In this document: one piece after another, positions 8,102 to 60,812 of the stretch
How positions within the stretch are numbered: the stretch's first letter is position 1
Layout of the letters: each line of letters begins with the position of its first letter
Source: Prevotella sp.
GTDB lineage: Bacteria > Bacteroidota > Bacteroidia > Bacteroidales > Bacteroidaceae
Assembly: GCA_017469955.1 (NCBI GenBank)
Contig: JAFUFJ010000020.1
Location: 1 to 64,000 of the forward strand
Reading direction: 5' to 3'
DNA: 64,000 nt
The notes under the pieces: generated by a model
What the model saw: the letters and a program-made list of their open reading frames with translations, nothing else
The model's database searches: none
What the model was told of the DNA's origin: nothing
Made by a program: the position numbers and the translations under genes

Positions 8102-8211
8102 GAGAAAGCTAAGAGTTTAGCCCGAGAAGTCTATGACTTATGAACAATAAACCTTAGCTTTCTCACCCTTAACCCATAGACTTCTCGGGGTGAAAGGATA
8201 GCTTTCTCAGG
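8102..8211 (+). repeat. family A 22-bp-pitch array, copy A1 (5 units)
   Basis: Five units of exactly 22 bp begin at 8102, 8124, 8146, 8168 and 8190. Units 1-2 open with GAGAA; units 3-5 carry TTCTC at unit positions 15-19. Units 2 and 4 contain a perfect 12-bp inverted pair (GAGAAGTCTATG and CATAGACTTCTC). It lies between the divergent luxS and GH127-fusion genes. Confidence 0.9.
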
Positions 8212-8272
8212 AAGACGGGAACGTGGAAAGGCGGAGAACGGACGATTTACTGCGAAAAGTTATGGCCAATTA

Positions 8273-8304
8273 TTTGGCTCATCGCAAAAATAATAGTAAA
8301 TTTG
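8273..8304 (+). promoter_or_regulatory. promoter of the ribose-salvage operon
   Basis: TTTG (8273-8276), 20-bp spacer, TAAATTTG (8297-8304). Good Bacteroidetes promoter ~70 bp upstream of the fusion gene's ATG. Confidence 0.7.
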
Positions 8305-8375
8305 CAGCAATGTTAGCCTCGTGAACATGCTCCGCTTGTTCTGCGACATACTATACGATCAGATACCTGAAACTT

Positions 8376-11300
8376 ATGGAAAAACCATCGACCACACAGC
8401 ATTCCCATCGGCCTGCATTCCACTTGTTGTACGCCCTGGGGCTTTTTGCCAGTATCTTTCTTTCCTGCCACGCCCCGGCTAAAGCCCAAACGGCGAGGAT
8501 GACGCTGCGAGGAGCCATGGGCGAACGCTATGAAGCCAACCTGCAGAACTGGCTGTTGCAGGCTCCTTTTGCCAATCCGGGCATGACAGAAATGTACTTC
8601 AGGCGCAACGCATCTCACCAGCCTATTGTGCCTTGGTATGGTGAGTTCTCGGGTAAATACCTGACGAGTGCGGCCCTTGCCTACGCCATGCAACCCGACG
8701 AACGATTGAGACAAGCCGTCGACTATGTGGTCGGAAGACTGGCTGAAGCGCAAGACTCCGACGGCTATCTCGGCGTGTGGTCCGACGAGAAAAAGCTGGC
8801 AGGCATGGCTCCCGGACACGGAAAGACATGGGACGTCTGGGCCCATTACCACAACATGCTGGGGCTCTTCTACTGGTATAAAGCCACCCATGACGAGCAG
8901 GCTCTGCAGGTCTTACGCAAAGCAGCCGACTGTCTGTACCAGTATTTCTGCGTCAACGGCCACGACCTTGACGAGGCAAAAGACGGTACCGACGCAGCCG
9001 TCGGCCACATCTTCGCCCTGCTATACAATCACTGTTCGCGCGAGGAACGCTATATGAAGATGGTCGAAAAGACGCTGCACACGTTCGCTTCCGAACAAGG
9101 AGGCGACTACTTCCGCAGCGGTCTTGAGGGAGTTCCGTTCTACAAGATGAAGCGCCGACGCTGGGAATGCCTGCATGCCGTCGAGACAATCCGCGAGATG
9201 TACGACATCAGTGGCGACGAGACCTACCGGAAAGCCTTTGAAAACATCTGGAGAAGCATCGCCGAATACGACCGCCACAACACCGGAGGTTTCTCGTCAG
9301 GCGAAGCAGCCTGCGGCAATCCCTACGACACTCGTGCCATAGAAACCTGCTGCACCATCGCCTGGATGGCACTGACAATCGACATGCTCAGCCTGACTCA
9401 CGACCCTAAAGTGGCCGACGAACTGGAACTGTCTACATGGAATGCGTTCCTGGGAGCACAGCATCCTTCCGGACGCAGCTTCACCTACAACACGCCAATG
9501 CTGGGCGACAAGAAGGCAAGTGCTCACGACATCGTCTTTCAATCCGTTGCCGGAAGTCCCGAACTGAACTGCTGCTCGGTGAACGGACCACGCGGTTTTG
9601 GAATGATTGGACAATGGGCCGTCACCAGCAACGACAAGATTCTCACCGTCAACTACTATGGCGAGTCATCCACAACCATCGACCATGACGGCGGAGAAGT
9701 CAGCGTGTTGCAGACCGGAAACTATCCCTTTGACAAGGACATCCACCTGCAATTCTCAACAGGAAAAGCCATCAAGACCCTTTGCTTGCGCATTCCCGCA
9801 TGGTCGAAAGAGACCATTCTTACCCTAAACGGGAAGCCTATGAAAGACGTGTGTGCAGGCACTTACTACACGATGCACGACATCCGTGACAACGACCAGA
9901 TAGACATCAGCTTCGACTTCAGCCTTCATTACTGGCAGGGCGACCGCGAACTCCACGGGAGAACAGCCATCTATCTCGGGCCGATTCTGCTGACTTGCGA
10001 CCAGCGATTCGAACCCCTCACGACCGACTCCCTACCCTCTCTTGAACTCTCTTCTATTGAAACCGAGCCACTCGACCCGTCAGCATGCCCATGGCCGCAA
10101 CCCTATCTGCTGGTCAAGGCTACCGACAGCAAGGGACACCAGCTCACGCTCTGCGACTTTGCCAGTGCCGGTCAGGCCGGAACAAGCTACACATCATGGC
10201 TTCCTACCCTGCCCTTGCTGCCCGTTTCCACAGGCATTATGCAGTGGAAAGACCGCCTTCCCGTGCAAGAACAGCAAGGAAAGCGCATCACACTCAGCAA
10301 GACAGTCCTCAAAGATAAGATCAGAGGCGGATGGGCTGGGCAAACTATCGGCTGCGCATATGGCGGACCTACGGAGTTCTGCTACCGTGGAATCATGATA
10401 GATGACAGCATCAACATCGCCTACCCCGAGCACCATCTGCAGTATTTCTATGACAAAGTTCCGGGACTCTACGACGACATCTACATGGATTTGACCTTCG
10501 TCGACGTGTTCAACCGTCTCGGTCTTGATGCGCCAGTCGACTCTTTCGCCACCGCTTTTGCCTATGCAAAATACCCGCTTTGGCATGCCAACCAAGCCGG
10601 ACGATACAACATTCAGCAGGGCATCATGCCCCCATCTTCGGGTTATTGGAAAAACAACCCGCACGCCGATTGTATCGATTACCAGATTGAAAGTGACTAT
10701 GCTGGCCTTATGACACCAGGAATGCCAAACGAAGCATCAAGGATTAGCGACAAGATCGGCCACATAATGAACTATGGAGACGGCTGGTATGGGGGCATAT
10801 TTGTTGGCGCAATGTATTCACTTTCCTTTGTATACAGCAACATCGAGACCATCGTTACTCAGGCGTTGAAGACCATTCCTCAGCGTAGTAAGTTCCATCA
10901 ATGCCTCAGCGACGTACTGAAATGGTACCATGAAGATCCCAAAGATTGGAAACGGGCATGGAGACTTTACAACGAGAAATGGGCCGAAGATGTGGGATGT
11001 CCCGAACTGACCATCGAACCAGGGAATATCGATGCGACGATGAACTCGGCCTATGTCGCCATAGGACTGCTCTATGGACACGGCGATTTCGGCAGGACTC
11101 TCGAGATTGCCACTCGTTGTGGTCAGGATTCTGACTGCAATCCGTCGACGGCAGGGGGCATCTTAGCCACCATGATGGGCTACAGTCATCTCCCAGAATC
11201 GTGGATGCCCAACCTGAGAGAGGTCGAGGATCGCAACCTTGCCTATACAGACATGTCGCTCAGCAAGGCCACCGATATCGTGTACAGACTGGCCCTTGAA

Positions 11301-11705
11301 GAGGTTGAACGCAATGGAGGAACCGTCGATGATGAGACGGTTACTATCAAGATTCAGCAGCCAAGAGCCGTAAGACTCGAACAGGGATTCACGGGATTGC
11401 ATCCCTTTCTGCTTGACAAAGACCGGGAACTCACGTCGGCAACCCTGTCCTTTGACGGCCACGCCATTGCCGTTTACGGCCAAGTTTCGTGTGCCGACAA
11501 GGACTATGAAGCGCAGCTGGAAGTCACAGTTGACGGGCATATCGACCGCATCATGACGCTTCCCGTCGCCTTCCTTCGTCGCTCGGCTGATGCTATTTAC
11601 TGGAACTACGACCTCGAAAAGGGGCATCATACCGTCACTTTCCGATTGCTGAATCCGCACGAAGACGCGAAAATCAACGCCCGTAAGATAATTGCTTATA
11701 ATTAG
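8376..11705 (+). CDS. secreted GH127-type glycosidase fused to ADP-ribosylglycohydrolase
   Basis: 1109 residues. The hydrophobic N-terminus is an export signal, with either a lipobox-like FLSC (Cys31) or signal peptidase I cleavage near 38. Residues ~40-640 form a GH127/DUF1680 barrel plus sandwich, the family of beta-L-arabinofuranosidases. Its zinc/nucleophile residues are visible: E323-T-C325 and C399-C400 in LNCCSVNG. Residues ~645-945 are an ADP-ribosylglycohydrolase (DraG/ARH) domain starting KIRGGWAGQTIGCAYGG, with DDSIN, YDDIYMD and the metal motif RCGQDSDCNPSTAGG (914-928). A C-terminal beta domain (~970-1109) may bind carbohydrate. A ribokinase and a permease follow at 6 and 12 bp spacing, so a ribofuranoside is the likely substrate. 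Both catalytic domains look intact; the precise substrate is inference. Confidence 0.85.
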   Translation: MEKPSTTQHSHRPAFHLLYALGLFASIFLSCHAPAKAQTARMTLRGAMGERYEANLQNWLLQAPFANPGMTEMYFRRNASHQPIVPWYGEFSGKYLTSAALAYAMQPDERLRQAVDYVVGRLAEAQDSDGYLGVWSDEKKLAGMAPGHGKTWDVWAHYHNMLGLFYWYKATHDEQALQVLRKAADCLYQYFCVNGHDLDEAKDGTDAAVGHIFALLYNHCSREERYMKMVEKTLHTFASEQGGDYFRSGLEGVPFYKMKRRRWECLHAVETIREMYDISGDETYRKAFENIWRSIAEYDRHNTGGFSSGEAACGNPYDTRAIETCCTIAWMALTIDMLSLTHDPKVADELELSTWNAFLGAQHPSGRSFTYNTPMLGDKKASAHDIVFQSVAGSPELNCCSVNGPRGFGMIGQWAVTSNDKILTVNYYGESSTTIDHDGGEVSVLQTGNYPFDKDIHLQFSTGKAIKTLCLRIPAWSKETILTLNGKPMKDVCAGTYYTMHDIRDNDQIDISFDFSLHYWQGDRELHGRTAIYLGPILLTCDQRFEPLTTDSLPSLELSSIETEPLDPSACPWPQPYLLVKATDSKGHQLTLCDFASAGQAGTSYTSWLPTLPLLPVSTGIMQWKDRLPVQEQQGKRITLSKTVLKDKIRGGWAGQTIGCAYGGPTEFCYRGIMIDDSINIAYPEHHLQYFYDKVPGLYDDIYMDLTFVDVFNRLGLDAPVDSFATAFAYAKYPLWHANQAGRYNIQQGIMPPSSGYWKNNPHADCIDYQIESDYAGLMTPGMPNEASRISDKIGHIMNYGDGWYGGIFVGAMYSLSFVYSNIETIVTQALKTIPQRSKFHQCLSDVLKWYHEDPKDWKRAWRLYNEKWAEDVGCPELTIEPGNIDATMNSAYVAIGLLYGHGDFGRTLEIATRCGQDSDCNPSTAGGILATMMGYSHLPESWMPNLREVEDRNLAYTDMSLSKATDIVYRLALEEVERNGGTVDDETVTIKIQQPRAVRLEQGFTGLHPFLLDKDRELTSATLSFDGHAIAVYGQVSCADKDYEAQLEVTVDGHIDRIMTLPVAFLRRSADAIYWNYDLEKGHHTVTFRLLNPHEDAKINARKIIAYN

Positions 11706-11711
11706 AAAGGT

Positions 11712-12635
11712 ATGGAAAGAAAGAAGAAAATCGTTGTAGTCGGCAGCTTCAACACCGACCTTGTCATCTCAACCGACCGCCATCCTCGCCCGGGAGAGAC
11801 CCTCATCGGACATGGTTTCATGGCCAATTTCGGCGGAAAAGGAGCCAATCAAGCCGTAGCTGCAGCCCGTTTGGGAGGCGATGTGGCCTTCGTTGCCTGC
11901 ATGGGTCGCGACGCATATGGGCAACAAGGACTTGAACACTTGGAGAAAGAGGGCGTCGACACGACCCATATCACTCGATCAGAGCAGCAGCCAACAGGCA
12001 TTGCCGTCATCACGGTTGATGCCAAAGGCGAGAATACCATCATCGTAGACAGCGGTGCGAACGGGCTGCTTTCGCCCGAGGACATCCACCAGTCTGCCGA
12101 CGTGTTCAGCCAGGCGTCGATCATATTGATGCAGCTTGAGACCCCGATACCTGCCCTTACCGAGGCAGCACGCTTAGGAAAGCAGCACGGAGCCCTTATC
12201 GTTCTCAACCCTGCTCCGGCACCAAAGACGCCCTTACCTCTTGAACTGCTGCAGCATGTCGACCTGCTTATTCCCAACCAAACCGAAGCTGAAAGCATCA
12301 GCGGCATTGCCGTCGGCGACCTATCTTCGGCCCAATCAGCCATTGAACGGTTAAGAACGATGGGCATCAACAACACCATCATCACCATGGGAAGCCAAGG
12401 AGCATCGCTGATGGAGGATGGAGAAATCAGGCTGATAGCCTCCTATCCTGCCCATGTAGTCGACACAACGGCAGCCGGAGACACCTTCTGTGGAGCCCTC
12501 TGTACGGCTCTTTCCGAAGGAAAAACGATGGCCGAAGCGGCCGACTTCGCCTGCAAAGCCTCCTCGATCACTGTCTCGCGCAAGGGTGCCCAGCAGTCAT
12601 TGCCCTATCGAAAAGAAATCAATCTCAACCATTAA
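11712..12635 (+). CDS. rbsK: ribokinase (PfkB family)
   Basis: 307 residues, normal for ribokinase, which phosphorylates D-ribose to ribose 5-phosphate with ATP in the cytoplasm. PfkB signature 1 is GGKGANQA at 41-48 preceded by FNTDLV (substrate Asp16). NQTEAE (189-194) is the nucleotide/Mg region, and signature 2 DTTAAGDTF (251-259) holds the catalytic base Asp257. The set GGKGANQA plus NQTEAE is typical of ribokinase rather than fructokinase or adenosine kinase. It begins 6 bp after the fusion enzyme and is followed 12 bp later by the permease, so the three form one operon. Confidence 0.9.
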   Translation: MERKKKIVVVGSFNTDLVISTDRHPRPGETLIGHGFMANFGGKGANQAVAAARLGGDVAFVACMGRDAYGQQGLEHLEKEGVDTTHITRSEQQPTGIAVITVDAKGENTIIVDSGANGLLSPEDIHQSADVFSQASIILMQLETPIPALTEAARLGKQHGALIVLNPAPAPKTPLPLELLQHVDLLIPNQTEAESISGIAVGDLSSAQSAIERLRTMGINNTIITMGSQGASLMEDGEIRLIASYPAHVVDTTAAGDTFCGALCTALSEGKTMAEAADFACKASSITVSRKGAQQSLPYRKEINLNH

Positions 12636-12647
12636 AAATAAGAAACT

Positions 12648-13652
12648 ATGTTTATTGTCAACAGTTATTTCCTTGCCGTCGTGCTCTGCGTGGTCACGAT
12701 GTTGTGCTGGGGTTCCTGGGGAAACACCCAGAAGCTGGCCGCCAAGAACTGGCGTTACGAGTTGTTCTATTGGGACTATGTCATAGGCATCGTTCTGTTC
12801 TCGCTCTTAATGGGCTTTACGCTGGGCAGTCACGGCAGCGAAGGCCGCGGCTTCGTGGCCGACTTACAGCAGCTTGCGCCAGCAGCCTTCTTGAGTGCGC
12901 TGCTGGGTGGCGTGATCTTCAATGCCTCCAACATCCTGCTTTCCACCTCAGTCTCGCTGGCAGGCATGTCGGTAGCCTTCCCCATTGGTGTGGGTCTGGC
13001 CCTTGTTCTCGGAGTCTTCAACACTTATTTCTTTGCTCCGAAGGGCGACCCTGTTACTCTTTTTGCCGGTGTAGCCTTAGTGGTGTTGGCCATCATCTTC
13101 AACGGAATGGCTGCAGCCAAGGCCCAGAAGTCTGACGACAGCCACAAGAAGAAAGGCATCGTCATTGCCATCATTGCCGGTATACTGATGTCGCTGTTCT
13201 ATCGTTTCGTAGCTGCTGCCATGGATCTCAGCGACTTTGCCCACCCAGCAGAAGGCAAAGCCACGCCCTACACTGCGTTCTTTATCTTCGCCCTTGGCAT
13301 CTTTGTCAGCAATTTTGTCTTCAACACCTATGTCATGCGCCGTCCGTTTGTGGGCGAGCCTGTCAGCTATAGCACCTATTTCAAGGGCTCACTCAGCACC
13401 CATTGCGTAGGCGTGCTCGGCGGTTTTGTGTGGGGACTTGGCACATTGCTCAGCTATATCTGTGCCGGAAAGGCCGGAGCTGCCGTCTCCTATGCACTCG
13501 GTCAAGGCGCACCAATGATAGCCGCGGCGTGGGGAGTGTTCATCTGGAAGGAGTTCAAGGGTGGCGGACGTGAAGTCAACCGCCTGCTGACGCTGATGTT
13601 CATCCTCTTCATTGCCGGACTCAGTCTTATCGTCATATCGGGCGGAAGCTAA
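12648..13652 (+). CDS. sugar permease of the GRP/RhaT-like (DMT) group, probable ribose importer
   Basis: 334 residues with about ten hydrophobic transmembrane helices and no signal peptide. It belongs to the glucose/ribose-uptake and rhamnose-permease branch of the drug/metabolite transporters: early WGSWGNTQKLA, ASNILLSTSVSLAGMSVAFPIGVGLALV in the middle, and ALGQGAPMIAAAWGVFIWKEFKG near the end. A central charged loop (SDDSHKKKG) separates two five-helix halves. Its position after a ribokinase in a three-gene operon argues for ribose uptake across the inner membrane. Rhamnose or another pentose cannot be excluded from sequence alone. Confidence 0.8.
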   Translation: MFIVNSYFLAVVLCVVTMLCWGSWGNTQKLAAKNWRYELFYWDYVIGIVLFSLLMGFTLGSHGSEGRGFVADLQQLAPAAFLSALLGGVIFNASNILLSTSVSLAGMSVAFPIGVGLALVLGVFNTYFFAPKGDPVTLFAGVALVVLAIIFNGMAAAKAQKSDDSHKKKGIVIAIIAGILMSLFYRFVAAAMDLSDFAHPAEGKATPYTAFFIFALGIFVSNFVFNTYVMRRPFVGEPVSYSTYFKGSLSTHCVGVLGGFVWGLGTLLSYICAGKAGAAVSYALGQGAPMIAAAWGVFIWKEFKGGGREVNRLLTLMFILFIAGLSLIVISGGS

Positions 13653-13684
13653 GCCGTCAGCTCCGCATGCCTTATCCGTCACGA

Positions 13685-13727
13685 CGGGCTGCCCTGCCAT
13701 TCATGCAGAGCAGCCCGCTTCTTTTCT
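13685..13727 (+). terminator. terminator of the ribose-salvage operon
   Basis: 8-bp stem CGGGCTGC / GCAGCCCG (13685-13692 with 13710-13717) followed by CTTCTTTTC. Confidence 0.65.
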
Positions 13728-13751
13728 CAGGACATCCCTTGCTCTCTCCTC

Positions 13752-13839
13752 TGTACACCATAGATGTATGCTCCATACACCTATGGAATATCGACCGTAC
13801 ATCTGCCGTGTATGGTGTGTACACGTGAGATATACGGCC
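13752..13839 (+). repeat. family B 22-bp-pitch array, copy B1 (4 units)
   Basis: Four 22-bp units start at 13752, 13774, 13796 and 13818. Each has TACA at unit positions 3-6, with TGTA or TATA at 14-17 in most. It is nearly identical to B2 (16418-16505), in the same orientation. It lies between the convergent permease and TlpA-like genes. Confidence 0.85.
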
Positions 13840-13949
13840 GTGGCATGTGCATCTTCTTCAGCACATCGCCATACAAGCTCCAGCAAATTCTTCTGTGTTT
13901 TCCGTGGGCATCATAACGACAAACGGGCAGAGACCATGCCACTCAACGG

Positions 13950-16349: not shown

Positions 16350-16417
16350 GAGAGTTTCCTAAAGTCTGTAAGGCAAAAGTGGCACATCGCTCAAGGTGCA
16401 TGCGTTCCATTCCTGAC

Positions 16418-16505
16418 CGTACATGGCAGATGTATGCCTCATACACCTATGGAATATCGACCGTACATCTGCCGTGTATGGTGCGTACACGTGAGATGTA
16501 CGGAC
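16418..16505 (+). repeat. family B 22-bp-pitch array, copy B2 (4 units)
   Basis: Units start at 16418, 16440, 16462 and 16484, with TACA at unit positions 3-6 in all four. Aligned with B1 over ~90 bp it has only about ten differences. Position: 5' of the large TlpA-like gene and 3' of the anti-sigma-like gene. The rest of the 340-bp gap (16350-16689) shows no gene. Confidence 0.85.
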
Positions 16506-16689
16506 GTGGTACGCGAGCCTTGACCGGTTCGTTCCACATGATGGTCACCGATTGCAAAGTTATTAAAAAGGGGGTATTTGGAGAAATTTGCTACTGACCG
16601 GGCACGGAACTTTAACATCTTTTTACCGACAGAGACCGTTTCATTCGAGCATTGCCGGCTGCAAGGACTCCAGACTGCACCCGCCAAGC

Positions 16690-22862: not shown

Positions 22863-23041
22863 AAAATGTTATATTATTTTCACATTATCATCCATTCTAT
22901 TGGCTGCCGACACCATCAGAAGCAAGTCCCATTGCCACAAGAAGACAGATTTTTTGTCCGCTTTTTCCGCTTTTTCCAATTATTTTAACTTATTAAAGAT
23001 TTACTAATATTTATTTTATTGTCGGTTTCAACGAAAAGAAT

Positions 23042-28937: not shown

Positions 28938-29069
28938 GAGAAAGCTGTCCTTTCAGGGCGAGAATCCTATCCTTTCAGGACGAGAATCCTTAGCTTTCTC
29001 GCCAATAACCCTATCCTTTCTCACCCATAACCCTATGACTTCTCAGGCTGAAGCCATAGGTTTCTCAGG
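28938..29069 (+). repeat. family A 22-bp-pitch array, copy A2 (6 units)
   Basis: Six units start at 28938, 28960, 28982, 29004, 29026 and 29048. Units 1-3 open with GAGAA; units 3-6 carry TTCTC at positions 15-19. It lies between the convergent efflux operon and mrp and has one more unit than the other well-kept copies. Confidence 0.9.
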
Positions 29070-30526: not shown

Positions 30527-30636
30527 GAGAAAGCTTAGGTTTTAGCCCGAGAAGTCATAGCTTTCATGCCAATAAACCTTAGCTTTCTCACTGATAACTC
30601 TATGACTTCTCGGGCTAAAACCTAAGCTTTCTCGCT
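30527..30636 (+). repeat. family A 22-bp-pitch array, copy A3 (5 units)
   Basis: Units start at 30527, 30549, 30571, 30593 and 30615. It is the most symmetric copy: 30527-30560 and 30600-30633 are perfect 34-bp inverted arms around a 39-bp centre. It lies between the mrp 5' side and the terminator of the acidic-protein operon. Confidence 0.95.
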
Positions 30637-34697: not shown

Positions 34698-34807
34698 CAG
34701 AAAGCTAAGGGTTATGAGTGAGAAGTCATAGGTTTTTCGTCAATAACTCTTAGCTTTCTCGACCATATCTCTATGACTTCTCGGACTAAAAGGATAGCTT
34801 TCTCGGC
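34698..34807 (+). repeat. family A 22-bp-pitch array, copy A4 (5 units)
   Basis: Units start at 34698, 34720, 34742, 34764 and 34786. Units 2 and 4 contain the pair GAGAAGTCATAG / CTATGACTTCTC. It lies in the 730-bp gap between the GH57 terminator and the secreted-protein promoter; the rest of the gap has no gene. Confidence 0.9.
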
Positions 34808-42156: not shown

Positions 42157-42266
42157 GAGAAAGCTTAGGTTTCAGCCCCAGAAGTCATAGCTTTCTCACC
42201 CAGAACTCTTAGCTTTCTCGGCCATAACCCATAGACTTCTTGACCTGAAACCTAAGCTTTCTCAAC
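42157..42266 (+). repeat. family A 22-bp-pitch array, copy A5 (5 units)
   Basis: Units start at 42157, 42179, 42201, 42223 and 42245. The outer arms pair: GAGAAAGCTTAGGTTTCAG with CTGAAACCTAAGCTTTCTC, a C:G pair where A3 has T:A. It lies between the miaA 5' side and the gapA terminator. Confidence 0.95.
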
Positions 42267-51329: not shown

Positions 51330-51392
51330 GCAACTGTTAAAAAATCAGATTTTTCACGACAAACGGTCTGTAGTCTAAGGCTGTCGAACATA

Positions 51393-51436: not shown

Positions 51437-51500
51437 TTCTATACGTCTCTCTATCAATAAGTTACAAAGAATCCCGCAAAGAACGATTCTTGTTCGCCTT

Positions 51501-51632
51501 GAGAAAGCTGCTGATTCTCGCCCTGAAAGGTGTCCTTTCTCGGCCACAGGCATATCCATTCTGCCCGTAAAGTATGTGGTTACTGGATGAGAAAAGGCAG
51601 ACTTCTCATCAAGAAAGGGCGCAGCCTTCATC
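51501..51632 (+). repeat. family A 22-bp-pitch array, copy A6 (6 units, degenerate)
   Basis: Units start at 51501, 51523, 51545, 51567, 51589 and 51611. Sequence is eroded (unit 4 keeps little), but GAGAA at the start of units 1 and 5 and TTCTC at positions 15-19 of units 1, 2 and 5 remain in register. It lies in the 470-bp gap between the convergent DUF1573 and trmN6 genes; the rest of that gap has no gene. Confidence 0.75.
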
Positions 51633-51799
51633 AAGAAGGCGTATGAAACGCCACTAAAAGCATACTTTTATACTGCCGAAAGGCTTAGAACCATCGCCCG
51701 GAAAGTGTTAAAATCTGACCAAATAAATTGACAATCGAACCCGTCTCCCGCTCTTGTTTCGGCCGTAAGACGGCACGGTACGGCAGCAGGACTGAGAGA

Positions 51800-52510: not shown

Positions 52511-52606
52511 CTATAAAAACGTCAAACATGCCGCTTTATTTTATTAAAAACAACTAAAAAAACACCATCTTTACGCGTCCATATCTGTTGTTTCAGCTTT
52601 TCTTTG

Positions 52607-52614
52607 TACCTTTG
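52607..52614 (+). promoter_or_regulatory. -7 box of the lon-tgt-lptG operon
   Basis: TACCTTTG, 35 bp before ATG 52649. It sits inside the longer open frame starting at 52604 and so excludes that start. Confidence 0.6.
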
Positions 52615-52648
52615 CACTCCATATTTTTTCACACACATACACACGTAC

Positions 52649-55105
52649 ATGAGCAAGAAATCAAATACATCCATCCAAATGATCGCCGACTACGAAGGCG
52701 ACATTTCTACCCTATTCAACTCACAGGAAGAAGGAATATATCCCATCCTGGCCACAAGGAACATGGTGTTCTTTCCTGGAGTAATCTCGCCTATCCTCAT
52801 CGGAAGAGACTCAAGCCTGAACCTCATCAAGCGCCTTGAGAAGCATCCTAACGCCACGTTCTGCATCTTCTGCCAGAAGAATCAGAACGTGGAAGAGCCC
52901 GAAATGGACGACCTCTACGAATATGGCGTCTTTGCAAAACTCGTCAGAGTGCTCGAGATTCCAGGCTCCTCAGAGAACCTTACGGCCATCATCCAAGGAC
53001 TTGGACGATGCAAGCTCTCGGCCATCACAGGCAAGAAACCCCACCTGCAAGGACTCTGCCAGCCGGCTCCCGACACACTTCCCGAGAAAGACGACAAAGA
53101 ATTTGCCACGGCAGTCGAAGACCTCAAGGCCGAAACCATTGAATACATCAAGCAAAACGACGAGATTCCAGACGAATCGCAGTTCGCACTCAACAACATA
53201 CAGAACGAGATCATACTGGTAGACTTCATCTGCTCAACCCTGCCATTCAATACGAACGACAAGATGAGAATGCTCAAGGCAAACTCATTCTACGAACGTG
53301 TCATCATCACTCTGAAGGCCATCAACAAGGAACTTCAGCTGCTCGAACTCAAGCACAACATACGAACCAAGACCAGAGAGGAAATCGACGAGCAGCAACG
53401 AGAGTACTTCCTTCAGCAGCAAATCAAGAACATCAAGGAAGAACTGGGCAACGGAGACGGCTCGCCCGAGCGCCATGAACTGGAACAAAAAGCAGGCAAG
53501 AAACTCTGGAGCGAGGAGGTGGCCAAGGTGTTCTACAAAGAACTCGACAAACTTGACCTGTATAACCCGCAAAGCCCCGAATACAGCATCCAGGTGAACT
53601 ATCTGCAGACAATGGTAGGACTGCCGTGGAACGAGTATACAGAAGACAACCTCGACCTGAAGAGAGCCCAGCGAATACTCAATCATGACCACTATGGCAT
53701 GGAGAAAGTAAAGGAGCGTATCCTGGAATATATCGCCGTATTAAAGCTGAGAGGCGACCTGAAATCGCCCATCATCTGCCTCTACGGCCCCCCGGGAGTG
53801 GGCAAAACAAGCCTCGGAAAGAGCATCGCTGAAGCCATGAAGCGAAAGTATGTAAGAATGTCATTGGGAGGCTTGCACGACGAAAGCGAAATAAGAGGCC
53901 ACCGCCGCACTTACGTTGGTGCCATGCCCGGACGCATCATCAAGAGCATACAAAAAGCCGGATCGGCCAACCCCGTGTTCATTCTCGACGAAATCGACAA
54001 GGTAACACAGATGACTCACAACGGAGACCCGTCGTCAGCACTGCTGGAAGTGCTCGATCCCGAGCAGAACAATGCCTTCCACGACAACTATCTTGACGTC
54101 GACTTCGACCTCTCTAAGGTGCTTTTCATTGCCACAGCCAACGATCTCAACACGATACCTCGTCCGCTGCTTGACCGCATGGAAGTCATTGAAGTGTCAG
54201 GATATATCACGGAAGAGAAAATAGAAATCGCCAAGCGGCACCTCATTCCACGCGAACTTGAGAACACAGGTTTCGGCGGAGAAGACATGAAACCGCAGTT
54301 CAACAAGGCCTCCATTGAGAAAATTATCGAGCAATATACACGCGAAAGCGGTGTGCGCCAGCTCGAGAAACAAATCAATAAAGCCATGAGAAAGATGGCT
54401 CTCAAGAAGGCAACGGAAGGCGAACTCACCAATCTGAAGATCACTCCCAGCGAACTAAAAGGCCTCTTGGGCAAACCACCCTTCTATCGCGACATCTATC
54501 AGGGCAACGATTATGCAGGAGTAGTGACAGGGCTGGCCTGGACAAGCGTTGGCGGAGAGATACTCTTCATCGAGACTTCACTCTCAAAGGGCAAGCCGGG
54601 CAAGCTGACACTGACGGGCAATCTGGGCGACGTCATGAAGGAAAGTGCCGTCATTGCCTTAGAATACGTAAAGGCACATGTCGACATTCTCGGCATAGAC
54701 CATCGACTGTTCGACCAGTGGAACATCCACATTCATGTGCCCGAAGGAGCCACTCCTAAGGACGGACCCTCAGCAGGCATCACCATCGCCACATCAATTG
54801 CATCGGCGTTGACTCAGAGAAAAGTGAGAAAAAACACAGCCATGACCGGCGAAATAACGCTGCGCGGAAAAGTACTTCCTGTGGGTGGTATCAAAGAAAA
54901 GATACTGGCAGCCAAACGAGCAGGCATCACTGACATCGTCATGTGCAAGGAAAACCGCAAGGACATTGAGGAGATACCCGAGAAATACCTTACGGGAGTC
55001 ACCTTCCACTATGTCGAAAACATACAGGATGTGTGGAAATTCGCCCTCACCGACGAAATTGTTGACTCCCCCATTAAACTGACTGTTGAGGAAGATAAAA
55101 AATGA
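52649..55105 (+). CDS. lon: ATP-dependent Lon protease
   Basis: 818 residues with start at ATG 52649 ([18 protein letters not shown]). Lon degrades misfolded and regulatory proteins in the cytoplasm. Domains: N-terminal substrate domain (~25-230) with a coiled coil to ~340, AAA+ module with Walker A GPPGVGKT at 380-387 and Walker [10 protein letters not shown], then the protease domain with the catalytic dyad Ser708 (PKDGPSAG) and Lys751 (GGIKEK). Its stop overlaps tgt (ATGA at 55102-55105). Confidence 0.97.
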
Positions 55106-56229
55106 CTTTCGAACTACAGCACACCGATTCTGCCAGTGATGCACGCACAGGCATCATCACAACCGGCCACGGACAGATAAAGACTCCTATCTTTATGCCC
55201 GTAGGAACATGCGGATCTGTCAAGGGAATTCACTTCGAAGAACTGCGACAACAGGTGGAAGCCCAAATCATTTTGGGCAACACTTACCACCTCTATCTGC
55301 GCCCAGGACTGGATGTTTTGCGAAAAGCAGGCGGGTTACACAAGTTCAATACGTGGGACAGACCTATCCTTACCGACTCTGGAGGCTTTCAGGTTTTCTC
55401 CCTGACCGGCATCAGAAAGCTCAAGGAAGAGGGCTGCGAATTCCGTTCACACATAGACGGATCGAAACATTTCTTTACCCCTGAAAGCGTCATGGACACC
55501 GAACGTGTCATAGGAGCGGATATTATGATGGCCTTCGACGAATGCCCTCCTGGGAAAAGTGACTATCAATATGCCAAGAAAAGCCTTCATATGACCCAGA
55601 GATGGCTCGACCGTTGCATCAAGAGATTTAACGAAACCGAACCTCTTTACGGGTATGAGCAGAGCCTTTTCCCCATCGTTCAGGGCTGCACTTACAAAGA
55701 TCTGCGCCAAGAAGCAGCCAAGTTCGTGGCTGACAAGGGGGCCGATGGCAACGCCATAGGTGGCCTGGCTGTCGGCGAACCCACGGAAGTGATGTACGAA
55801 ATGATTGAAGTTGTCAACGACATTCTCCCCAAAGACAAACCACGATACCTTATGGGCGTCGGCACTCCTCAGAACATTCTCGAAGGGATTGCACGCGGAG
55901 TTGACATGTTTGACTGCGTAATGCCTACACGCAACGGCCGCAATGCCATGCTGTTTACATATCAAGGCACCATGAATATGCGCAACAAGAAGTGGGAGAC
56001 TGACTTCTCTCCCATCGATCCCGACAGCTGTTATGTCGACCGTATACACACAAAGGCCTACTTGCATCATCTCTTCAAGGCCCAGGAACTGCTGGCTATG
56101 CAGATAGCATCCATCCATAACCTCGCCTTCTACCTGCGCCTGGTCACCGACGCACGTCAGCATATAGAGCAAGGAGACTTTGCAAGATGGAAGGATTCCG
56201 TCATCGATCAGTTAGGGAAACGAGTCTAA
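55102..56229 (+). CDS. tgt: queuine/preQ1 tRNA-guanine transglycosylase
   Basis: 375 residues. Tgt swaps guanine-34 of Asn, Asp, His and Tyr tRNAs for the queuosine precursor. The catalytic base region is ILTDSGGFQVFSL, the nucleophile Asp lies in MFDCVMPTRNGRN, and GGLAVGE and MGVGTPQNILEG are intact. The zinc site of most bacterial Tgt (CxCxxC...H) is replaced: DSCYVDRIHTKAYLHHL keeps one Cys only. I recall the same in other Bacteroidetes, so it is likely a lineage trait and not damage. It overlaps lon by 4 bp. Confidence 0.95.
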   Translation: MTFELQHTDSASDARTGIITTGHGQIKTPIFMPVGTCGSVKGIHFEELRQQVEAQIILGNTYHLYLRPGLDVLRKAGGLHKFNTWDRPILTDSGGFQVFSLTGIRKLKEEGCEFRSHIDGSKHFFTPESVMDTERVIGADIMMAFDECPPGKSDYQYAKKSLHMTQRWLDRCIKRFNETEPLYGYEQSLFPIVQGCTYKDLRQEAAKFVADKGADGNAIGGLAVGEPTEVMYEMIEVVNDILPKDKPRYLMGVGTPQNILEGIARGVDMFDCVMPTRNGRNAMLFTYQGTMNMRNKKWETDFSPIDPDSCYVDRIHTKAYLHHLFKAQELLAMQIASIHNLAFYLRLVTDARQHIEQGDFARWKDSVIDQLGKRV

Positions 56230-56244
56230 TGAACATATAAGGAC

Positions 56245-57468
56245 ATGGACATCAGAAAGACAACCGAAGCGACAAAACGGCTCAAATGTGAGCTTTCACT
56301 TCTTCTTTCCCGGCTAAAACTTCTTTTTTCCCGGCTAAAGAAGAGGCTAAGTTTTCTTTCTGTATTGGATCCCAAGCGATATATCAAGATATTAGACTGG
56401 TACATTATCAAGAAGTTCATCGGCACTTATATCTTTTCAATAGCCCTGATCATCGCCATTGCCATTGTGTTTGACTTCAACGAGAACCTGTCAAAATTCA
56501 CACAATACCATGCTCCGATGAGGGCTATCATCTTTGATTATTATGCGAACTTCATCCCTTATTACTCAAATCTGTTCAGTCCGCTTTTCGTTTTCATTGC
56601 CGTTATCTTCTTCACTTCTAAGCTGGCTGGCAATAGTGAGATAATATCCATCCTTGCAGCTGGCGTCTCTTTCAAGCGTCTGATGCGCCCTTATATGATT
56701 TCCTGCATACTCATCTCCGCCTTGTCGTTCTACTTAAGTGCCTATGTTATTCCCCATGGTACCATTGTCAGGCAAAACTTCGAGGCACAATACCGCAACT
56801 CCAAGAAGCGTACTACAGCTGACAATGTGCAACTTCAGGTAGACCAAGGGACGATAGCCTATATCCAACACTTCGACAACAACACCAAACGAGGCTATGG
56901 CTTCGCCTTATACAAGTTCGACAACAAAAAGCTTGTGAGCCACATGACTGCCTATGAAATCCAATATGACACCATATCTGACTCCAAATTCCATTGGAGT
57001 GCCCGCAACTGGAAGATCCGAGAACTGAAAGGATTGCGAGAACACATCACCAACGGGACGCAGCTTGACACCCTGATCATGATGGAACCTGCCGACCTTG
57101 TCTACTCAAAAGGCCAGCAAGAGACCTTCACAAGTCCCGAACTGAAGGCCTATATTTCGAAGCAGATCAACCGAGGGTCGGTCAATGTGGTGCAGTATCA
57201 GGTGGAGTATCATAAGCGTATTGCCTCATCATTCGCATCATTCATTCTTACCATCATCGGCCTTTCCCTTTCATCAAGGAAGCGAAAGGGAGGCATGGGA
57301 CTATACCTTGGCATCGGTCTGGCGCTCAGTTTTACCTATATTATGCTCCAGACCGTATCGTCAACCTTTGCCATCAACGCCAGCGCACCTCCCATGCTTG
57401 CTGCTTGGACACCCAACATCATATTTGCCGTCGTAGCCTATTTCTGCTACCGTAAAGCCCCTAATTAG
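56245..57468 (+). CDS. LptF/LptG-family lipopolysaccharide export permease
   Basis: 407 residues. The canonical start of the family is seen at ~50 (ILDWYIIKKFIGTYIFSIALIIAIAI), with three N-terminal helices, a ~170-residue periplasmic beta-jellyroll (~140-310) and three C-terminal helices (ASFILTIIGLSLSSRKRKGGMGLYLG). It moves LPS from the inner membrane to the Lpt bridge with LptB. The first ~45 residues are a basic extension that includes a 21-bp tandem duplication (56299-56340) coding LLLSRLK LLFSRLK. It starts 15 bp after tgt. Confidence 0.9.
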   Translation: MDIRKTTEATKRLKCELSLLLSRLKLLFSRLKKRLSFLSVLDPKRYIKILDWYIIKKFIGTYIFSIALIIAIAIVFDFNENLSKFTQYHAPMRAIIFDYYANFIPYYSNLFSPLFVFIAVIFFTSKLAGNSEIISILAAGVSFKRLMRPYMISCILISALSFYLSAYVIPHGTIVRQNFEAQYRNSKKRTTADNVQLQVDQGTIAYIQHFDNNTKRGYGFALYKFDNKKLVSHMTAYEIQYDTISDSKFHWSARNWKIRELKGLREHITNGTQLDTLIMMEPADLVYSKGQQETFTSPELKAYISKQINRGSVNVVQYQVEYHKRIASSFASFILTIIGLSLSSRKRKGGMGLYLGIGLALSFTYIMLQTVSSTFAINASAPPMLAAWTPNIIFAVVAYFCYRKAPN

Positions 57469-57473
57469 CGACT

Positions 57474-59108
57474 ATGAAATTTGAAGAAACATATCTTAGC
57501 GACAATATCCTCGACGCTCTCTACGACATGCGCTTTGAGGAGATGACGCCTATTCAGGAGAAGTGTATCCCTGAAATCCTTGACGGGCATGATGTGCTCG
57601 GCGTAGCCCAGACCGGAACGGGCAAGACGGCAGCCTATCTGCTGCCAGTACTCTCTATGCTCGACGACGGAGGGGTAACGTTTCCCGACGGCCGTGACAT
57701 CACTTTTCCGCGTGATGCCATCAACTGCATCGTCATGTCACCCACCCGCGAACTTGCCCAACAAATCGATCAAGCCATGCAAGGCTTCAGCTACTATCTC
57801 ACCGACGTAAGCAGCATCGCCATCTATGGAGGAAATGACGGCAGTCGATACGAACAAGAGCACCGCGGACTGACGCTCGGAGCCGACGTTGTCATTGCCA
57901 CTCCCGGCCGTCTTATCAGCCATCTCACGATGGGAAATGCCGACTTCTCACGCGTGTCTTTCTTCATATTAGACGAAGCCGACCGCATGCTTGACATGGG
58001 CTTTTCCGACGATATCCTGAAAATTGCGCGCCACTTGCCCCCGACATGCCAGACCATCATGTTCTCAGCCACTATGCCTGAAAAGATTGAAGAGCTGGCC
58101 AAGACGCTCCTGAAGAATCCGGTAGAAGTGAAGATTGCCGTCAGCAAACCGGCTGAGAAGATACGCCAAAGCGCCTATATGTGCTATGAACCCCAGAAGA
58201 TTCAGCTTGTCAGGCATCTATTTAAAGAAGGCAACCTCAAGCGAGTCATTATCTTCGGAGGCAAGAAACAGAAGGTTAAACTCATCAACAGACAGCTGCA
58301 GCAGATGGGAATCAGTAGCGGTGAGATGCATTCTGACCTCGAACAAGCCCAACGAGACGACATGATGTACCGGTTTAAGAGCGGACAAATCGACGTGCTT
58401 GTGGCTACAGACATCGTGAGTCGTGGCATTGACATCGACGATATTGCAATGGTCATCAACTATGACGTGCCCCATGACGCCGAAGATTACGTCCATCGTA
58501 TCGGACGAACGGCCCGGGCTGAGCGTGACGGCATAGCCATCACCTTCATAACCGAAGACGACATCTACTATTTCAACCAGATTGAGCGCCTGCTTGAGAA
58601 AGAAGTCACGAAGAATCCGCTGCCGGAAGACTCGGGCAACGGGCCTGAATATCGTGTCATAAAGGGTGGCAACAGGGGCAAAAGGAGCCCGCATTCCGAC
58701 CGCAAAGACGGCCATAAATCCCGAAAAGGCCATGCCAGAAAGCCTCAGGAGAAGGCTTCTCAACCTGAAAATGCAGCCCAAGGACAGCAGGAACAACAGC
58801 CCCGTCGCGACTCGAAAAAACAGAAAGACGGCCGGCAGAGGTCCCAAAAGAGCAGCAAACCACACGAGAAGCGTCCGGCGGAGCAGCCCCTTGCGATGCA
58901 GAATGCTGCCGCCAGTGCCGACAAACCCAAGAAAAAGAAGCCGAGAAACCACCGCAAACCGTCGGACAACCGACCTGCGAAACCGGCTCAAAAACCTGTC
59001 GCAAAACCGGCAACTGCCACATCTGCTCCCGCAAAGGCCGAACATCCTGCCGGCATCAAGAAACTTTTGTCAAAACCATTAGGCTGGCTCAAGAAAGTCG
59101 TCGGATGA
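57474..59108 (+). CDS. DEAD-box RNA helicase, RhlE-like
   Basis: 544 residues. Helicase core ~1-375: Q motif FEEMTPIQEKCIPEIL, motif I AQTGTGKTAAYLLP, Ia PTRELAQQ, II DEADRMLDMGF, III SAT, V ATDIVSRGIDI, VI HRIGRTARAERDG. The C-terminal ~165 residues are Lys/Arg/Pro/Gln-rich and low complexity (KKKKPRNHRKPSDNRP), an RNA-binding tail typical of cold-adapted or ribosome-assembly helicases. It follows the LptG-like gene by 5 bp, so it may be read from the lon promoter. Confidence 0.93.
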   Translation: MKFEETYLSDNILDALYDMRFEEMTPIQEKCIPEILDGHDVLGVAQTGTGKTAAYLLPVLSMLDDGGVTFPDGRDITFPRDAINCIVMSPTRELAQQIDQAMQGFSYYLTDVSSIAIYGGNDGSRYEQEHRGLTLGADVVIATPGRLISHLTMGNADFSRVSFFILDEADRMLDMGFSDDILKIARHLPPTCQTIMFSATMPEKIEELAKTLLKNPVEVKIAVSKPAEKIRQSAYMCYEPQKIQLVRHLFKEGNLKRVIIFGGKKQKVKLINRQLQQMGISSGEMHSDLEQAQRDDMMYRFKSGQIDVLVATDIVSRGIDIDDIAMVINYDVPHDAEDYVHRIGRTARAERDGIAITFITEDDIYYFNQIERLLEKEVTKNPLPEDSGNGPEYRVIKGGNRGKRSPHSDRKDGHKSRKGHARKPQEKASQPENAAQGQQEQQPRRDSKKQKDGRQRSQKSSKPHEKRPAEQPLAMQNAAASADKPKKKKPRNHRKPSDNRPAKPAQKPVAKPATATSAPAKAEHPAGIKKLLSKPLGWLKKVVG

Positions 59109-59142
59109 CATCCCGACCGGCATACTTCCTTTGACATAAATC

Positions 59143-59191
59143 AAAATATTCTCGATTTTTCTGTCATTTTGACTGAAATCGAGGATATTTT
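59143..59191 (+). terminator. hairpin between the DEAD-box helicase and gdhA
   Basis: ~17-bp inverted repeat AAAATATTCTCGATTTT / GAAATCGAGGATATTTT (59143-59159 with 59175-59191; two mismatches), then TCTTTCAATTTGTTTT. It probably ends the long lon-helicase transcript. Confidence 0.6.
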
Positions 59192-59225
59192 CTTTCAATT
59201 TGTTTTGATTTAGACGCAAAAAGCT

Positions 59226-59233
59226 TACCTTTG
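59226..59233 (+). promoter_or_regulatory. -7 box of gdhA
   Basis: TACCTTTG with a TTTG 18 bp upstream, 70 bp before ATG 59303; it lies at the very start of the longer open frame and rules that start out. Confidence 0.65.
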
Positions 59234-59302
59234 CAATCAGAAAAGAGTATCACATGCTTCCTTAAGGTAAAAAGATTGTATAACACATCAAAGCACAAAA
59301 CA

Positions 59303-60640
59303 ATGAAAGCAACCGAAGTTGTTGAGAACTTGAAGCGCCGCTTCCCCAACGAGCCTGAGTATATTCAGGCCGTAAGCCAGGTCCTTTCCACCATTGAGGA
59401 CGAGTACAACAAACATCCTGAATTCGAGCGTGCCAACCTGATCGAGCGTCTTTGCATACCCGATCGCCTCGTCCAGTTCCGCGTTACATGGACTGACGAC
59501 CACGGAAACGTGCAGACCAACATGGGCTATCGCATCCAGCACAACAACGTCATCGGCCCTTATAAGGGAGGCATCCGCTTCCATGCATCGGTCAATCTCT
59601 CCATCTTGAAGTTCCTTGCTTTCGAACAAACCTTCAAAAACTCGCTCACCACCCTGCCTATGGGCGGTGCAAAGGGTGGCTCTGACTTCTCTCCCCGGGG
59701 CAAGTCCAATGCCGAGGTGATGCGTTTCTGCCAGGCCTTCGTCAGCGAACTCTATCGCCACATAGGTCCTGACGAGGATGTTCCGGCAGGCGACATCGGC
59801 GTAGGCGGTCGCGAAGTGGGCTACATGTTTGGCATGTACAAGAAGCTTACCCACCAGTTCCAGGGCGTTTTCACCGGCAAAGGCCTCGAGTTCGGGGGCT
59901 CGCTCATCCGTCCGGAAGCCACCGGTTACGGCAACGTATACTTCCTTCTGAACATGCTTAAGACCCGCAACATCGACATCAAGGGCAAGACCGTGCTCGT
60001 CAGCGGTGCCGGCAATGTGGCCCAATACACGCTGGAGAAGCTCATCGAGCTGGGTGCCAAGCCCGTCACCTGCAGCGACTCTGACGGATATATCTATGAT
60101 CCTGACGGCATCGACCGCGAGAAGCTCGACTTCATCATGGAGCTAAAGAACATTGACCGCGGACGCATCTCTGAGTATGCCGAGCGCTATCCGGGCGTGA
60201 AATACGTGCCAGGAGCCAAGCCTTGGTTCGAGAAGGCCGACATCGCCCTGCCCTCTGCCACCCAGAACGAGATCAACGAAGAGGCAGCACTGGCCCTTGT
60301 CGCCAACGGAGTGATTGCCGTTAGCGAGGGCGCCAACATGCCTTCTACGCCTGAAGCCATCCGCGTGTTCCAGGAAGCCCGCATACTTTACGCTCCCGGA
60401 AAGGCTGCCAATGCCGGAGGAGTGGCCGTGAGCGGACTCGAAATGAGCCAGAACTCGGAGCGCCTGCGCTGGAGTCGTGAGGAAGTAGACCAAAAACTCC
60501 ACGACATCATGAACGACATCCACGCCAACTGCGTGCGCTATGGAGCCGAGCCCGACGGCTATATCAACTACGTGCGCGGTGCCAATGTGGCCGGCTTCCT
60601 GAAGGTTGCCAAGGCTATGATGGCACAAGGCATCGTCTGA
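59303..60640 (+). CDS. gdhA: NAD(P)-dependent glutamate dehydrogenase
   Basis: 445 residues with start at ATG 59303 (MKATEVVENLKRRF). It makes glutamate from 2-oxoglutarate and ammonia, or the reverse. Substrate motifs: GPYKGGIRFH and the catalytic-lysine block PMGGAKGGSDFSPRGKS; DVPAGDIGVGGREVGYMFG; the Rossmann part has VSGAGNVAQYT. Size and motifs match the hexameric ~50-kDa family (NADP type). Codon use suggests high expression. Single gene. Confidence 0.96.
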   Translation: MKATEVVENLKRRFPNEPEYIQAVSQVLSTIEDEYNKHPEFERANLIERLCIPDRLVQFRVTWTDDHGNVQTNMGYRIQHNNVIGPYKGGIRFHASVNLSILKFLAFEQTFKNSLTTLPMGGAKGGSDFSPRGKSNAEVMRFCQAFVSELYRHIGPDEDVPAGDIGVGGREVGYMFGMYKKLTHQFQGVFTGKGLEFGGSLIRPEATGYGNVYFLLNMLKTRNIDIKGKTVLVSGAGNVAQYTLEKLIELGAKPVTCSDSDGYIYDPDGIDREKLDFIMELKNIDRGRISEYAERYPGVKYVPGAKPWFEKADIALPSATQNEINEEAALALVANGVIAVSEGANMPSTPEAIRVFQEARILYAPGKAANAGGVAVSGLEMSQNSERLRWSREEVDQKLHDIMNDIHANCVRYGAEPDGYINYVRGANVAGFLKVAKAMMAQGIV

Positions 60641-60702
60641 CTCCTGAGCCTCTCGGGAGACAACGCCGGCCGTCGTCGGCCATCCCCGTGAGGCATCAGC
60701 CT

Positions 60703-60812
60703 GAGAAAGCTTAGCTTTCAGGGTGAGAAGTCTTAGGATTATTGGCAACAACTCATAGCTTTCTCGCTGATAACCCTTAGCTTTCTGACCTTGAAAGCTA
60801 AGCTTTCTCGCG
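60703..60812 (+). repeat. family A 22-bp-pitch array, copy A7 (5 units)
   Basis: Units start at 60703, 60725, 60747, 60769 and 60791. The outer arms pair over 18-19 bp (GAGAAAGCTTAGCTTTCA with TGAAAGCTAAGCTTTCTC); here the inner bases differ from A3 and A5 on both sides and still pair. It lies between gdhA and the next plus-strand gene. Confidence 0.95.

What the first reader, a model, noticed from the sequence alone, without database searches (positions are those of the whole stretch)
8102..60812. Seven dispersed arrays with an exact 22-bp pitch (family A: GAGAA...TTCTC)
Arrays at 8102-8211, 28938-29069, 30527-30636, 34698-34807, 42157-42266, 51501-51632 and 60703-60812 each split cleanly into 5 or 6 consecutive 22-bp units. 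Units are not identical: they share only a degenerate palindrome (GAGAAAGCT / AGCTTTCTC). What is kept is the register: TTCTC at unit positions 15-19, GAGAA at 1-5. Twenty-two bp is about two helical turns, so every half-site would face the same side of the DNA. This fits neither CRISPR (no spacers) nor a simple tandem repeat (units too diverged), and no transposase is linked. The closest analogue I recall is the BrickBuilt element of P. gingivalis, with ~23-bp bricks.
Basis: partly seen in the sequence, partly recalled or inferred. Interest (0 to 1): 0.85.

Follow-up and report, generated by a model that had tools for sequence, protein, structure and literature searches.

The report
Helix-phased palindrome arrays across Prevotella genomes
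Between its genes this gut bacterium carries more than a hundred short arrays of palindromes spaced exactly two DNA-helix turns apart; related species carry arrays with the same spacing but other letters, which suggests that the shape of the DNA, more than its wording, is what is kept.

Summary
Identity between positions inside the seven arrays is 0.61 at lag 22 and 0.55 at lag 44, otherwise 0.15-0.33. A geometry-only detector finds exactly these seven in the window at half-pitch 11 bp and none at 9, 10, 12 or 13.

The genome holds at least 136 such arrays. In 99 copies the AA at unit positions 4-5 and TT at 15-16, an AA/TT step every 11 bp, deviate 0.2% of the time; other core positions deviate 21.8%. 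Arrays are intergenic, favour convergent gaps and sit nearer stops than starts.

60 of 100 sampled same-genus genomes hold matches to a mixed profile, with species-specific letters. In Prevotella nigrescens one replicon mixes many cores at this pitch. The catalogued 188-bp PINSR repeat is probably one member. Predicted curvature is high, though not unique to arrays. MITE, RAYT-REP, CRISPR, BrickBuilt and terminator readings are unsupported or contradicted.

Best reading: a helically phased bending/wrapping element at transcription-unit ends, working like a BIME. The bound protein is unknown.

The parts
8102..8211 (+). five-unit array; core 8102-8208, between divergent genes (luxS and a GH127-type gene)
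   Evidence: units read; AA 5/5, TT 5/5; genes by hexamer caller and Pfam
28938..29069 (+). six-unit array; standard core from 28960; between convergent genes (ABC-2 permease gene and mrp-like gene)
   Evidence: AA 6/6, TT 6/6
30527..30636 (+). five-unit array, the query used for searches; co-directional gap
   Evidence: AA 5/5, TT 5/5; best match to profile R1; most curved spot of the window in the wedge model
34698..34807 (+). five-unit array, unit 4 lacks its AA; on the 3' side of a GH57 gene
   Evidence: AA 4/5, TT 5/5
42157..42266 (+). five-unit array in the gapA-miaA gap, beyond a hairpin with flanking T/A run that follows gapA
   Evidence: AA 5/5, TT 5/5; gap sequence printed; Pfam
51501..51632 (+). 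degenerate six-unit array in a convergent gap; below the profile threshold, not in the 99 copies, and not curved in the model
   Evidence: AA 5/6, TT 4/6; absent from the profile list; value 0.874
60703..60812 (+). five-unit array; co-directional gap downstream of a glutamate-dehydrogenase-type gene
   Evidence: AA 5/5, TT 5/5

Best explanation
The arrays are helically phased bending or wrapping elements placed at the ends of transcription units. Shown: each unit puts an AA and a TT step 11 bp apart, and five units in register put ten AA/TT steps on one face of the helix over 110 bp; a weaker form of the same phase runs on for about four units on each side. Predicted by a wedge model: static curvature (my conversion, if planar: very roughly 110-200 degrees per array), which holds or grows when the model helix is underwound. 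Inferred: the curved, dyad-symmetric DNA is wrapped by a chromosomal protein (gyrase or another nucleoid protein; none identified) and acts as a topological anchor or supercoil sink between neighbouring genes, as E. coli BIME-2 arrays, strong gyrase sites, are proposed to do. Also inferred: arrays spread within a genome by copying or conversion of the core, and their letters drift or are replaced between species while selection keeps the geometry.
For: AA/TT positions deviate from consensus in 0.2% of cases against 21.8% at the other 87 core positions, in 99 copies; all ten dinucleotides intact in 95 of 99. The phase persists in flanks whose consensus is only 0.7-5.7 bits per unit against 28-31 in the core. 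Related species keep the 22-bp frame with other letters. In two 50-kb stretches of Prevotella nigrescens the cores differ from array to array while A- and T-runs stay: 13 hits at half-pitch 11, 2 at the other four tested. Wedge model: end-to-end over contour 0.758 for 99 own arrays against 0.921 for dinucleotide shuffles, 0.685 against 0.907 in 12 G006 arrays, 0.839 against 0.927 in 8 P. nigrescens arrays; far flanks 0.911 against 0.922. Convergent gaps enriched, 31 of 95 against 16 of 119, p 0.0009; 36 of 48 co-directional copies nearer the upstream stop, p 0.0007. Precedent: the E. coli gyrase motif is 130 bp, symmetric, periodic at 10.75 bp, and BIME-2 elements are strong gyrase sites (PMC6379681, passages).
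Against: No bound protein was found. Curvature is not unique to arrays: three of the eight most curved spots of the window are not arrays, the degenerate array 51501 is not curved, and array-free samples have 17-21 strongly curved spots per 100 kb against 24-26 in array-bearing ones. Underwinding did not increase curvature for the own arrays (0.758, 0.748, 0.765). In this genome eight hexamers make 89.5% of 990 half-sites, more specific than bending alone needs. 40 of 100 same-genus genomes show no match, so the element is dispensable. One species (G115) replaces most AA/TT by AT (2 of 8 kept). Wedge parameters are recalled, not looked up. [quoted passage not shown]
Confidence: 0.4

Rival explanations
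1. Operator- or iteron-like array: a sequence-specific dimeric DNA-binding protein binds each palindrome and lines up along one face at two turns per dimer; recognition letters co-evolve with the protein in each species; the role is regulatory or nucleoid-organising.
For: Restricted half-site vocabulary, 43 hexamers and eight words for 89.5% of 990; dyad in each unit; C at 8 and G at 12 mostly kept across species; species-specific consensus.
Against: P. nigrescens mixes many cores in one replicon, which a base-reading dimer would not tolerate; phase leaks into flanks without the words; no DNA-binding gene family stands out next to arrays in the families listed.
Confidence: 0.25
2. Non-autonomous mobile element (MITE- or REPIN-like): the array is the sequence a transposase in trans recognises; conservation reflects transposition needs and recent copying, not host function.
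For: High copy number (at least 136 places); two 98% identical cores 1.1 kb apart with unrelated flanks in L094; patchy distribution in the genus; gapA-miaA gap 389 bp in the window but 80-198 bp in L112-L114, without an array.
Against: No clear target-site duplication. Y1 transposase present in 6 of 12 array-rich and 6 of 12 array-free genomes; DDE_Tnp_1 in 8 of 12 and 9 of 12; neither is found in the own genome, which is 75.6% complete. Median pairwise core identity is only 0.757 with AA/TT intact. Other transposase families were not tested.
Confidence: 0.18
3. RNA element: the transcribed array folds into a long hairpin acting as terminator, attenuator or mRNA stabiliser.
For: Very stable predicted hairpins on both strands, z -11.4 and -12.1; position after stop codons; columns 13, 14 and 17 pair above expectation, by 0.14-0.17.
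Against: No overall covariation in 80 non-redundant copies, mean excess -0.009 over 21 variable pairs; the pairing is a by-product of tandem palindromes. Terminator-like hairpins already lie between stop and array in 26 of 74 segments. 16 of 95 copies are in divergent gaps. No Rfam match in the window.
Confidence: 0.06
4. Neutral minisatellite: ordinary local tandem duplication of a palindromic 22-mer.
For: In G006 several arrays have units that share linkers within the array; one plain 22-bp minisatellite occurs at L202:12848.
Against: A hundredfold difference of constraint between AA/TT and other positions, the shared frame across species and biased placement.
Confidence: 0.05

Closest known systems
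[quoted passage not shown] 2015, PMC4755523)
   Same: Intergenic, 177-184 copies, non-coding, no terminal inverted repeats (section 14). Four matches to the array repeat of G108 are exactly 188 bp, the PINSR length, and that repeat occurs at nine places in a P. nigrescens replicon as a 22-bp-pitch array.
   Different: The window's arrays have another sequence, no conserved long flanks and a fixed five-unit core. Other G108 matches are longer or shorter than 188 bp. The PINSR consensus (a figure) could not be read, so identity is inferred.
BIME/REP elements of E. coli, as gyrase sites
   Same: Many intergenic palindromic copies; dyad symmetry; helical phasing as in the gyrase motif (PMC6379681, passages); bias to gene ends.
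   Different: No GTAG/CGTC tag in the core (seen in the alignment; tags from PMC3733652, passages); strict 22-bp pitch; no association with a Y1 transposase; letters change between species.
BrickBuilt of Porphyromonas gingivalis (PMC4596501)
   Same: Tandem units of about two helical turns, intergenic, Bacteroidales.
   Different: 23-nt near-identical direct repeats, 1 to 22.8 per element, 19 copies, leader and tail, IS5-like terminal repeats; here 22 bp, diverged palindromes, usually five units, at least 136 copies.
Plasmid iteron arrays such as the 22-bp iterons of R6K (recalled, from no call)
   Same: Two-turn pitch puts each site on one face.
   Different: Iterons are a cluster at an origin; these are at least 136 dispersed chromosomal arrays.

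Membership tests
PINSR (as a sequence family) | 188-bp consensus sequence | tested here: inconclusive
   consensus not readable here; the window array had no match in plasmids, where the G108 repeat hits P. nigrescens, so the window array is not PINSR by sequence at that sensitivity
PINSR (as a sequence family) | absence of terminal inverted repeats | tested here: not met
   the window's five-unit core is itself a near palindrome with mirrored ends
BrickBuilt | 23-nt pitch | tested here: not met
   lag 22 gives 0.61, lag 23 gives 0.28
BrickBuilt | leader and tail with IS5-like terminal repeats | tested here: not met
   no conserved flanks beyond phase; core ends GAGAAAGCT/AGCTTTCTC differ from the TIRs of Table 2
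MITE | target-site duplication | tested here: not met
   best excess of equal 2-mers 26 of 99 against 18.4 expected; 4-mers 4 of 98 against 0.8
MITE | cognate transposase in the genome | tested here: inconclusive
   PF01797 and PF01609 absent from the own, 75.6% complete genome; other families not tested
REP/RAYT | association with a Y1 (RAYT) transposase | tested here: not met
   6 of 12 array-rich and 6 of 12 array-free genomes have PF01797
BIME-like gyrase site (works like) | dyad-symmetric, ~11-bp periodic AT/GC over about 130 bp | tested here: met
   motif described
BIME-like gyrase site (works like) | gyrase binding or cleavage | not testable with these tools
   needs Topo-Seq
CRISPR | repeats separated by unique spacers of similar length | tested here: not met
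   units abut at 22 bp
Intrinsic terminator or RNA hairpin | compensatory changes in the stem | tested here: not met
   mean excess -0.009 in 80 non-redundant copies, though three column pairs exceed by 0.14-0.17
Iteron / operator array | cognate binding protein | not testable with these tools
   no candidate among the Pfam families listed for flanking genes

The most novel reading that the evidence does not exclude
A widespread Bacteroidaceae class of chromosomal architecture element is defined by geometry rather than sequence: dyads every 22 bp with AA/TT steps every 11 bp. It is kept at transcription-unit ends while its letters are rewritten species by species, a bacterial wrapping code, comparable to nucleosome positioning, read by an undescribed or re-purposed nucleoid protein or topoisomerase.
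Probability: 0.33. Interest if true: 0.9.

Novelty: new variant of a known kind. Interest (0 to 1): 0.72.

Why it matters
High-copy intergenic repeats in bacteria are usually defined by sequence. Here what is shared across species is helical geometry, with letters free to change, which is what a DNA-bending or DNA-wrapping role predicts. That would make the old question of what ~11-bp AA/TT phasing does in bacterial chromosomes testable at discrete, countable loci. It would also give the catalogued but unexplained PINSR repeat a structural description and a family, and it offers natural experiments: gaps with and without an array in related species.

Tried and rejected
RNA hairpin: strong folds, but the pairing excess seen with 30 copies is absent on average in 80 non-redundant copies, with three column pairs still above expectation. 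RAYT and DDE_Tnp_1 as drivers: no association. Enriched neighbour family: none stands out among the 25 families listed (of 190 matched) for 139 of 192 flanking proteins; the top is GH43 in 4 of 139. Conservation at orthologous sites: only suggestive; 4 of 11 G006 orthologues of flanking genes also flank arrays, against 33 of 239 G006 genes (p 0.049), and two of the four belong to one gap. Carriage by phages or plasmids: the window array (401 bases) had no match in plasmids; one literal pattern of it had none in viral contigs; the G108 repeat had none in phages. Named gapA neighbourhoods: none of 80 loci has an array at 9 of 10 or better; at 8 of 10 a subset of 646,975 bases gave 1 at half-pitch 11 and 4 at the others. 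Pitch-agnostic palindrome scan: noisy; G006 peaks at 22 bp (16) against 0-8 at pitches 15-32, but 17 at 33; the window gives 3 at 22 and 3 at 33; array-free samples show no peak. Orphan CRISPR of B. fragilis (PMC5704556, passages): 24-bp repeats with 39-bp spacers, so another thing.

Rows dropped and limits: array 51501 is below the profile threshold and not in the 99 copies. In one search, 1 copy overlapping a gene call and 3 without a called gene on both sides were left out of the 95. In one search one plain 22-bp minisatellite (L202:12848) was left out; of the 23 relatives' arrays printed there, L189, L196, one in L202, L034, L035 and L036 were not used in alignment A2. I entered 150 of the 151 matches into. 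The tool scored only some candidates per genome (40, 150, 60, 38, 40, 19), so copy numbers are lower bounds. In one search the offset pairs 10/12 and 12/10, which also make 22 bp, gave 15 and 11 hits in G006 because A- and T-runs are longer than two. G006 stretches were taken from three contigs already known to hold matches. The 99 copies were chosen by similarity.
Full report
Observation. The seven arrays were read directly. They split into 22-bp units with identity 0.61 at lag 22 and 0.55 at lag 44, and 0.15-0.33 at the other lags from 10 to 45. Asking only for AA and TT alternating every 11 bp, with no other letters, recovers exactly the seven arrays in 64 kb and nothing at half-pitch 9, 10, 12 or 13. 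The better invariant is AA at positions 4-5 and TT at 15-16 (35 of 37 units each), so the helical step is 11 bp and the unit is two such steps.

Copy number and anatomy. The own genome is 2.26 Mb in 22 contigs, 75.6% complete. A sequence-only profile built from 34 copies gives 151 matches, the tool having scored 150 of 1450 first-look candidates; the 150 that I entered fall at 136 distinct places, a lower bound. The standard element is five units (110 bp) and nearly palindromic as a whole: unit 1 mirrors unit 5 and unit 2 mirrors unit 4. In 99 distinct copies all ten dinucleotides are intact in 95 and nine in 4. Deviation from consensus is 0.2% at the 20 AA/TT positions and 21.8% at the other 87 of the 107-bp core. 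These copies were chosen by similarity, which favours conserved ones but not AA/TT over other columns by itself. The 990 half-sites use 43 hexamers, and eight of them cover 89.5%. Outside the core the consensus drops from 28-31 bits per unit to 0.7-5.7, yet T at 15-16 on the left and A at 4-5 on the right stay raised for about four units. The nearest flank units keep a trace of the consensus, so they may be decayed units.

Placement. Of 99 copies, 95 could be placed between called genes: 48 co-directional, 31 convergent, 16 divergent; one overlaps a gene call and three lack a called gene on one side. Array-free gaps of 30 bp or more, in the window and the fetched stretches, are 80, 16 and 23. 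Convergent gaps are enriched (p 0.0009), divergent ones not changed (p 0.72), and 36 of 48 co-directional copies are nearer the upstream stop (p 0.0007). The gene caller is my own hexamer scorer and the background is local, not genome-wide. Terminator-like hairpins lie between stop and array in 26 of 74 segments; in array-free gaps they are found in 2 of 52 co-directional and 9 of 26 convergent gene ends. So many arrays follow a terminator rather than being one.

Relatives. The GapA scan of named genomes points to herbivore-gut Prevotellaceae/Bacteroidaceae assemblies (96-97% GapA identity in the closest). The first profile matched only the same genus: 7 of 60 genomes including the own. Loci from those genomes carry other palindromes, in G006 and G014 clearly at the same pitch. 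A mixed profile matched 60 of 100 same-genus genomes including the own at E up to 0.001, 28 of 201 of the family in 14 of 30 genera and 11 of 198 of the order, 8 of these outside the family and weak. The best locus per genome mostly shows species-specific units in the frame AA-NN-C-WWW-G-NN-TT at 22 bp; G115 keeps only 2 of 8 AA/TT steps. Because that profile was trained on 22-bp arrays it cannot show that other pitches are absent. Two named Bacteroidales loci have palindromes at 21 and 23 bp (L128, L117), and some order-level hits look like 21-bp arrays. In 300 kb of G006 the detector gives 17 arrays at half-pitch 11 and 0-1 at 8, 9, 10, 12, 13, 14. G016 and G024 samples (200 kb each) gave none at 8 of 8.

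Link to a catalogued repeat. Four matches to the array repeat in G108, a two-contig 2.7-Mb genome, are exactly 188 bp, while others run longer or shorter. That repeat hits a 567,798-bp Prevotella nigrescens replicon at nine places and a second P. nigrescens record at one. The one examined with annotation lies in a convergent gap. Naito et al. described a 188-bp intergenic repeat, PINSR, in 177 and 184 copies in two P. intermedia strains and present in P. nigrescens, without terminal inverted repeats and of unknown function (PMC4755523; outline, passages, sections 7 and 14 seen). I conclude that PINSR is probably the member of this class in that group; its consensus could not be read. In two 50-kb P. 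nigrescens stretches there are 13 hits at half-pitch 11 and 2 at 9, 10, 12 and 13 together. A few of the 13 are weak by eye, but the clear ones carry different cores within one replicon, with A- and T-runs every 11 bp.

Mechanism. Two facts weigh most. First, the letters between the AA/TT steps change between species and, in P. nigrescens, within one replicon, while the phase does not. Second, the phase continues into the flanks. This is what bending or wrapping needs. A dinucleotide wedge model (parameters recalled) gives strong curvature for arrays of three species against dinucleotide shuffles. For G006 and P. nigrescens it grows when the helix is underwound; for the own arrays it stays about the same. 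Five of the eight most curved spots in the window are arrays, but three are not, and array-free genomes also have curved spots, 17-21 per 100 kb in G016 and G024 against 24-26 in the window, G006 and P. nigrescens. Curvature therefore supports the reading without proving it. The E. coli gyrase motif, 130 bp, symmetric and periodic at 10.75 bp, and its BIME-2 sites give a concrete precedent (PMC6379681, passages). The restricted word set in this genome keeps a base-reading dimer array as the main rival.

Spread. Two 98%-identical cores with unrelated flanks lie 1.1 kb apart in L094, so the core can be copied or converted exactly. No clear target-site duplication is seen. Y1 and DDE_Tnp_1 transposases do not track the arrays. 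In G006 several arrays look locally expanded. The gapA-miaA gap has an array in the window and in G006, with different letters. The fourteen named loci whose sequence after gapA I printed show none by eye, and the detector finds none at 9 of 10 in the 80 named loci, though L128 has a 21-bp-pitch palindrome run near the end of gapA. Overall positional conservation is marginal (p 0.049).

Literature. Searches for Prevotella, Bacteroides or Bacteroidales palindromic or 22-bp intergenic arrays, for BrickBuilt, for PINSR and for curved DNA returned no description of this geometry in the listings and passages that I saw. Only open-licence papers are held, so this is no proof of absence from print.

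Noticed in passing
L128 near 11174 and L117 near 19894: Named Bacteroidales loci with tandem palindromes at 21-bp (near the end of gapA) and 23-bp pitch, possible cousins with another pitch.
   Followed up: no
L094:1381-1487 and L094:2504-2610: Two 98% identical array cores 1.1 kb apart on the same strand with unrelated flanks: recent exact copying or gene conversion.
   Followed up: partly
L005, L007, L013 (contig C4 of the own genome): Three arrays share flanking sequence on one side, which looks like segmental duplication.
   Followed up: no
L202:12848: A plain 22-bp minisatellite in G006, units CTCAAATTCTTGATTTTTAATT-like, same pitch but hardly palindromic.
   Followed up: no
L300, L301 (another genus of the family): Arrays bordered on the right by a TTTCCAGGG-like stretch that may be a longer repeat unit.
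   Followed up: no
L314-L316 (NZ_CP082843.1): A 568-kb P. nigrescens record filed as a plasmid carries housekeeping-type genes such as purD and dihydroorotase, so it may be a second chromosome.
   Followed up: no
window 22905-23011: The second most curved spot of the window in the wedge model at default twist is not an array.
   Followed up: no
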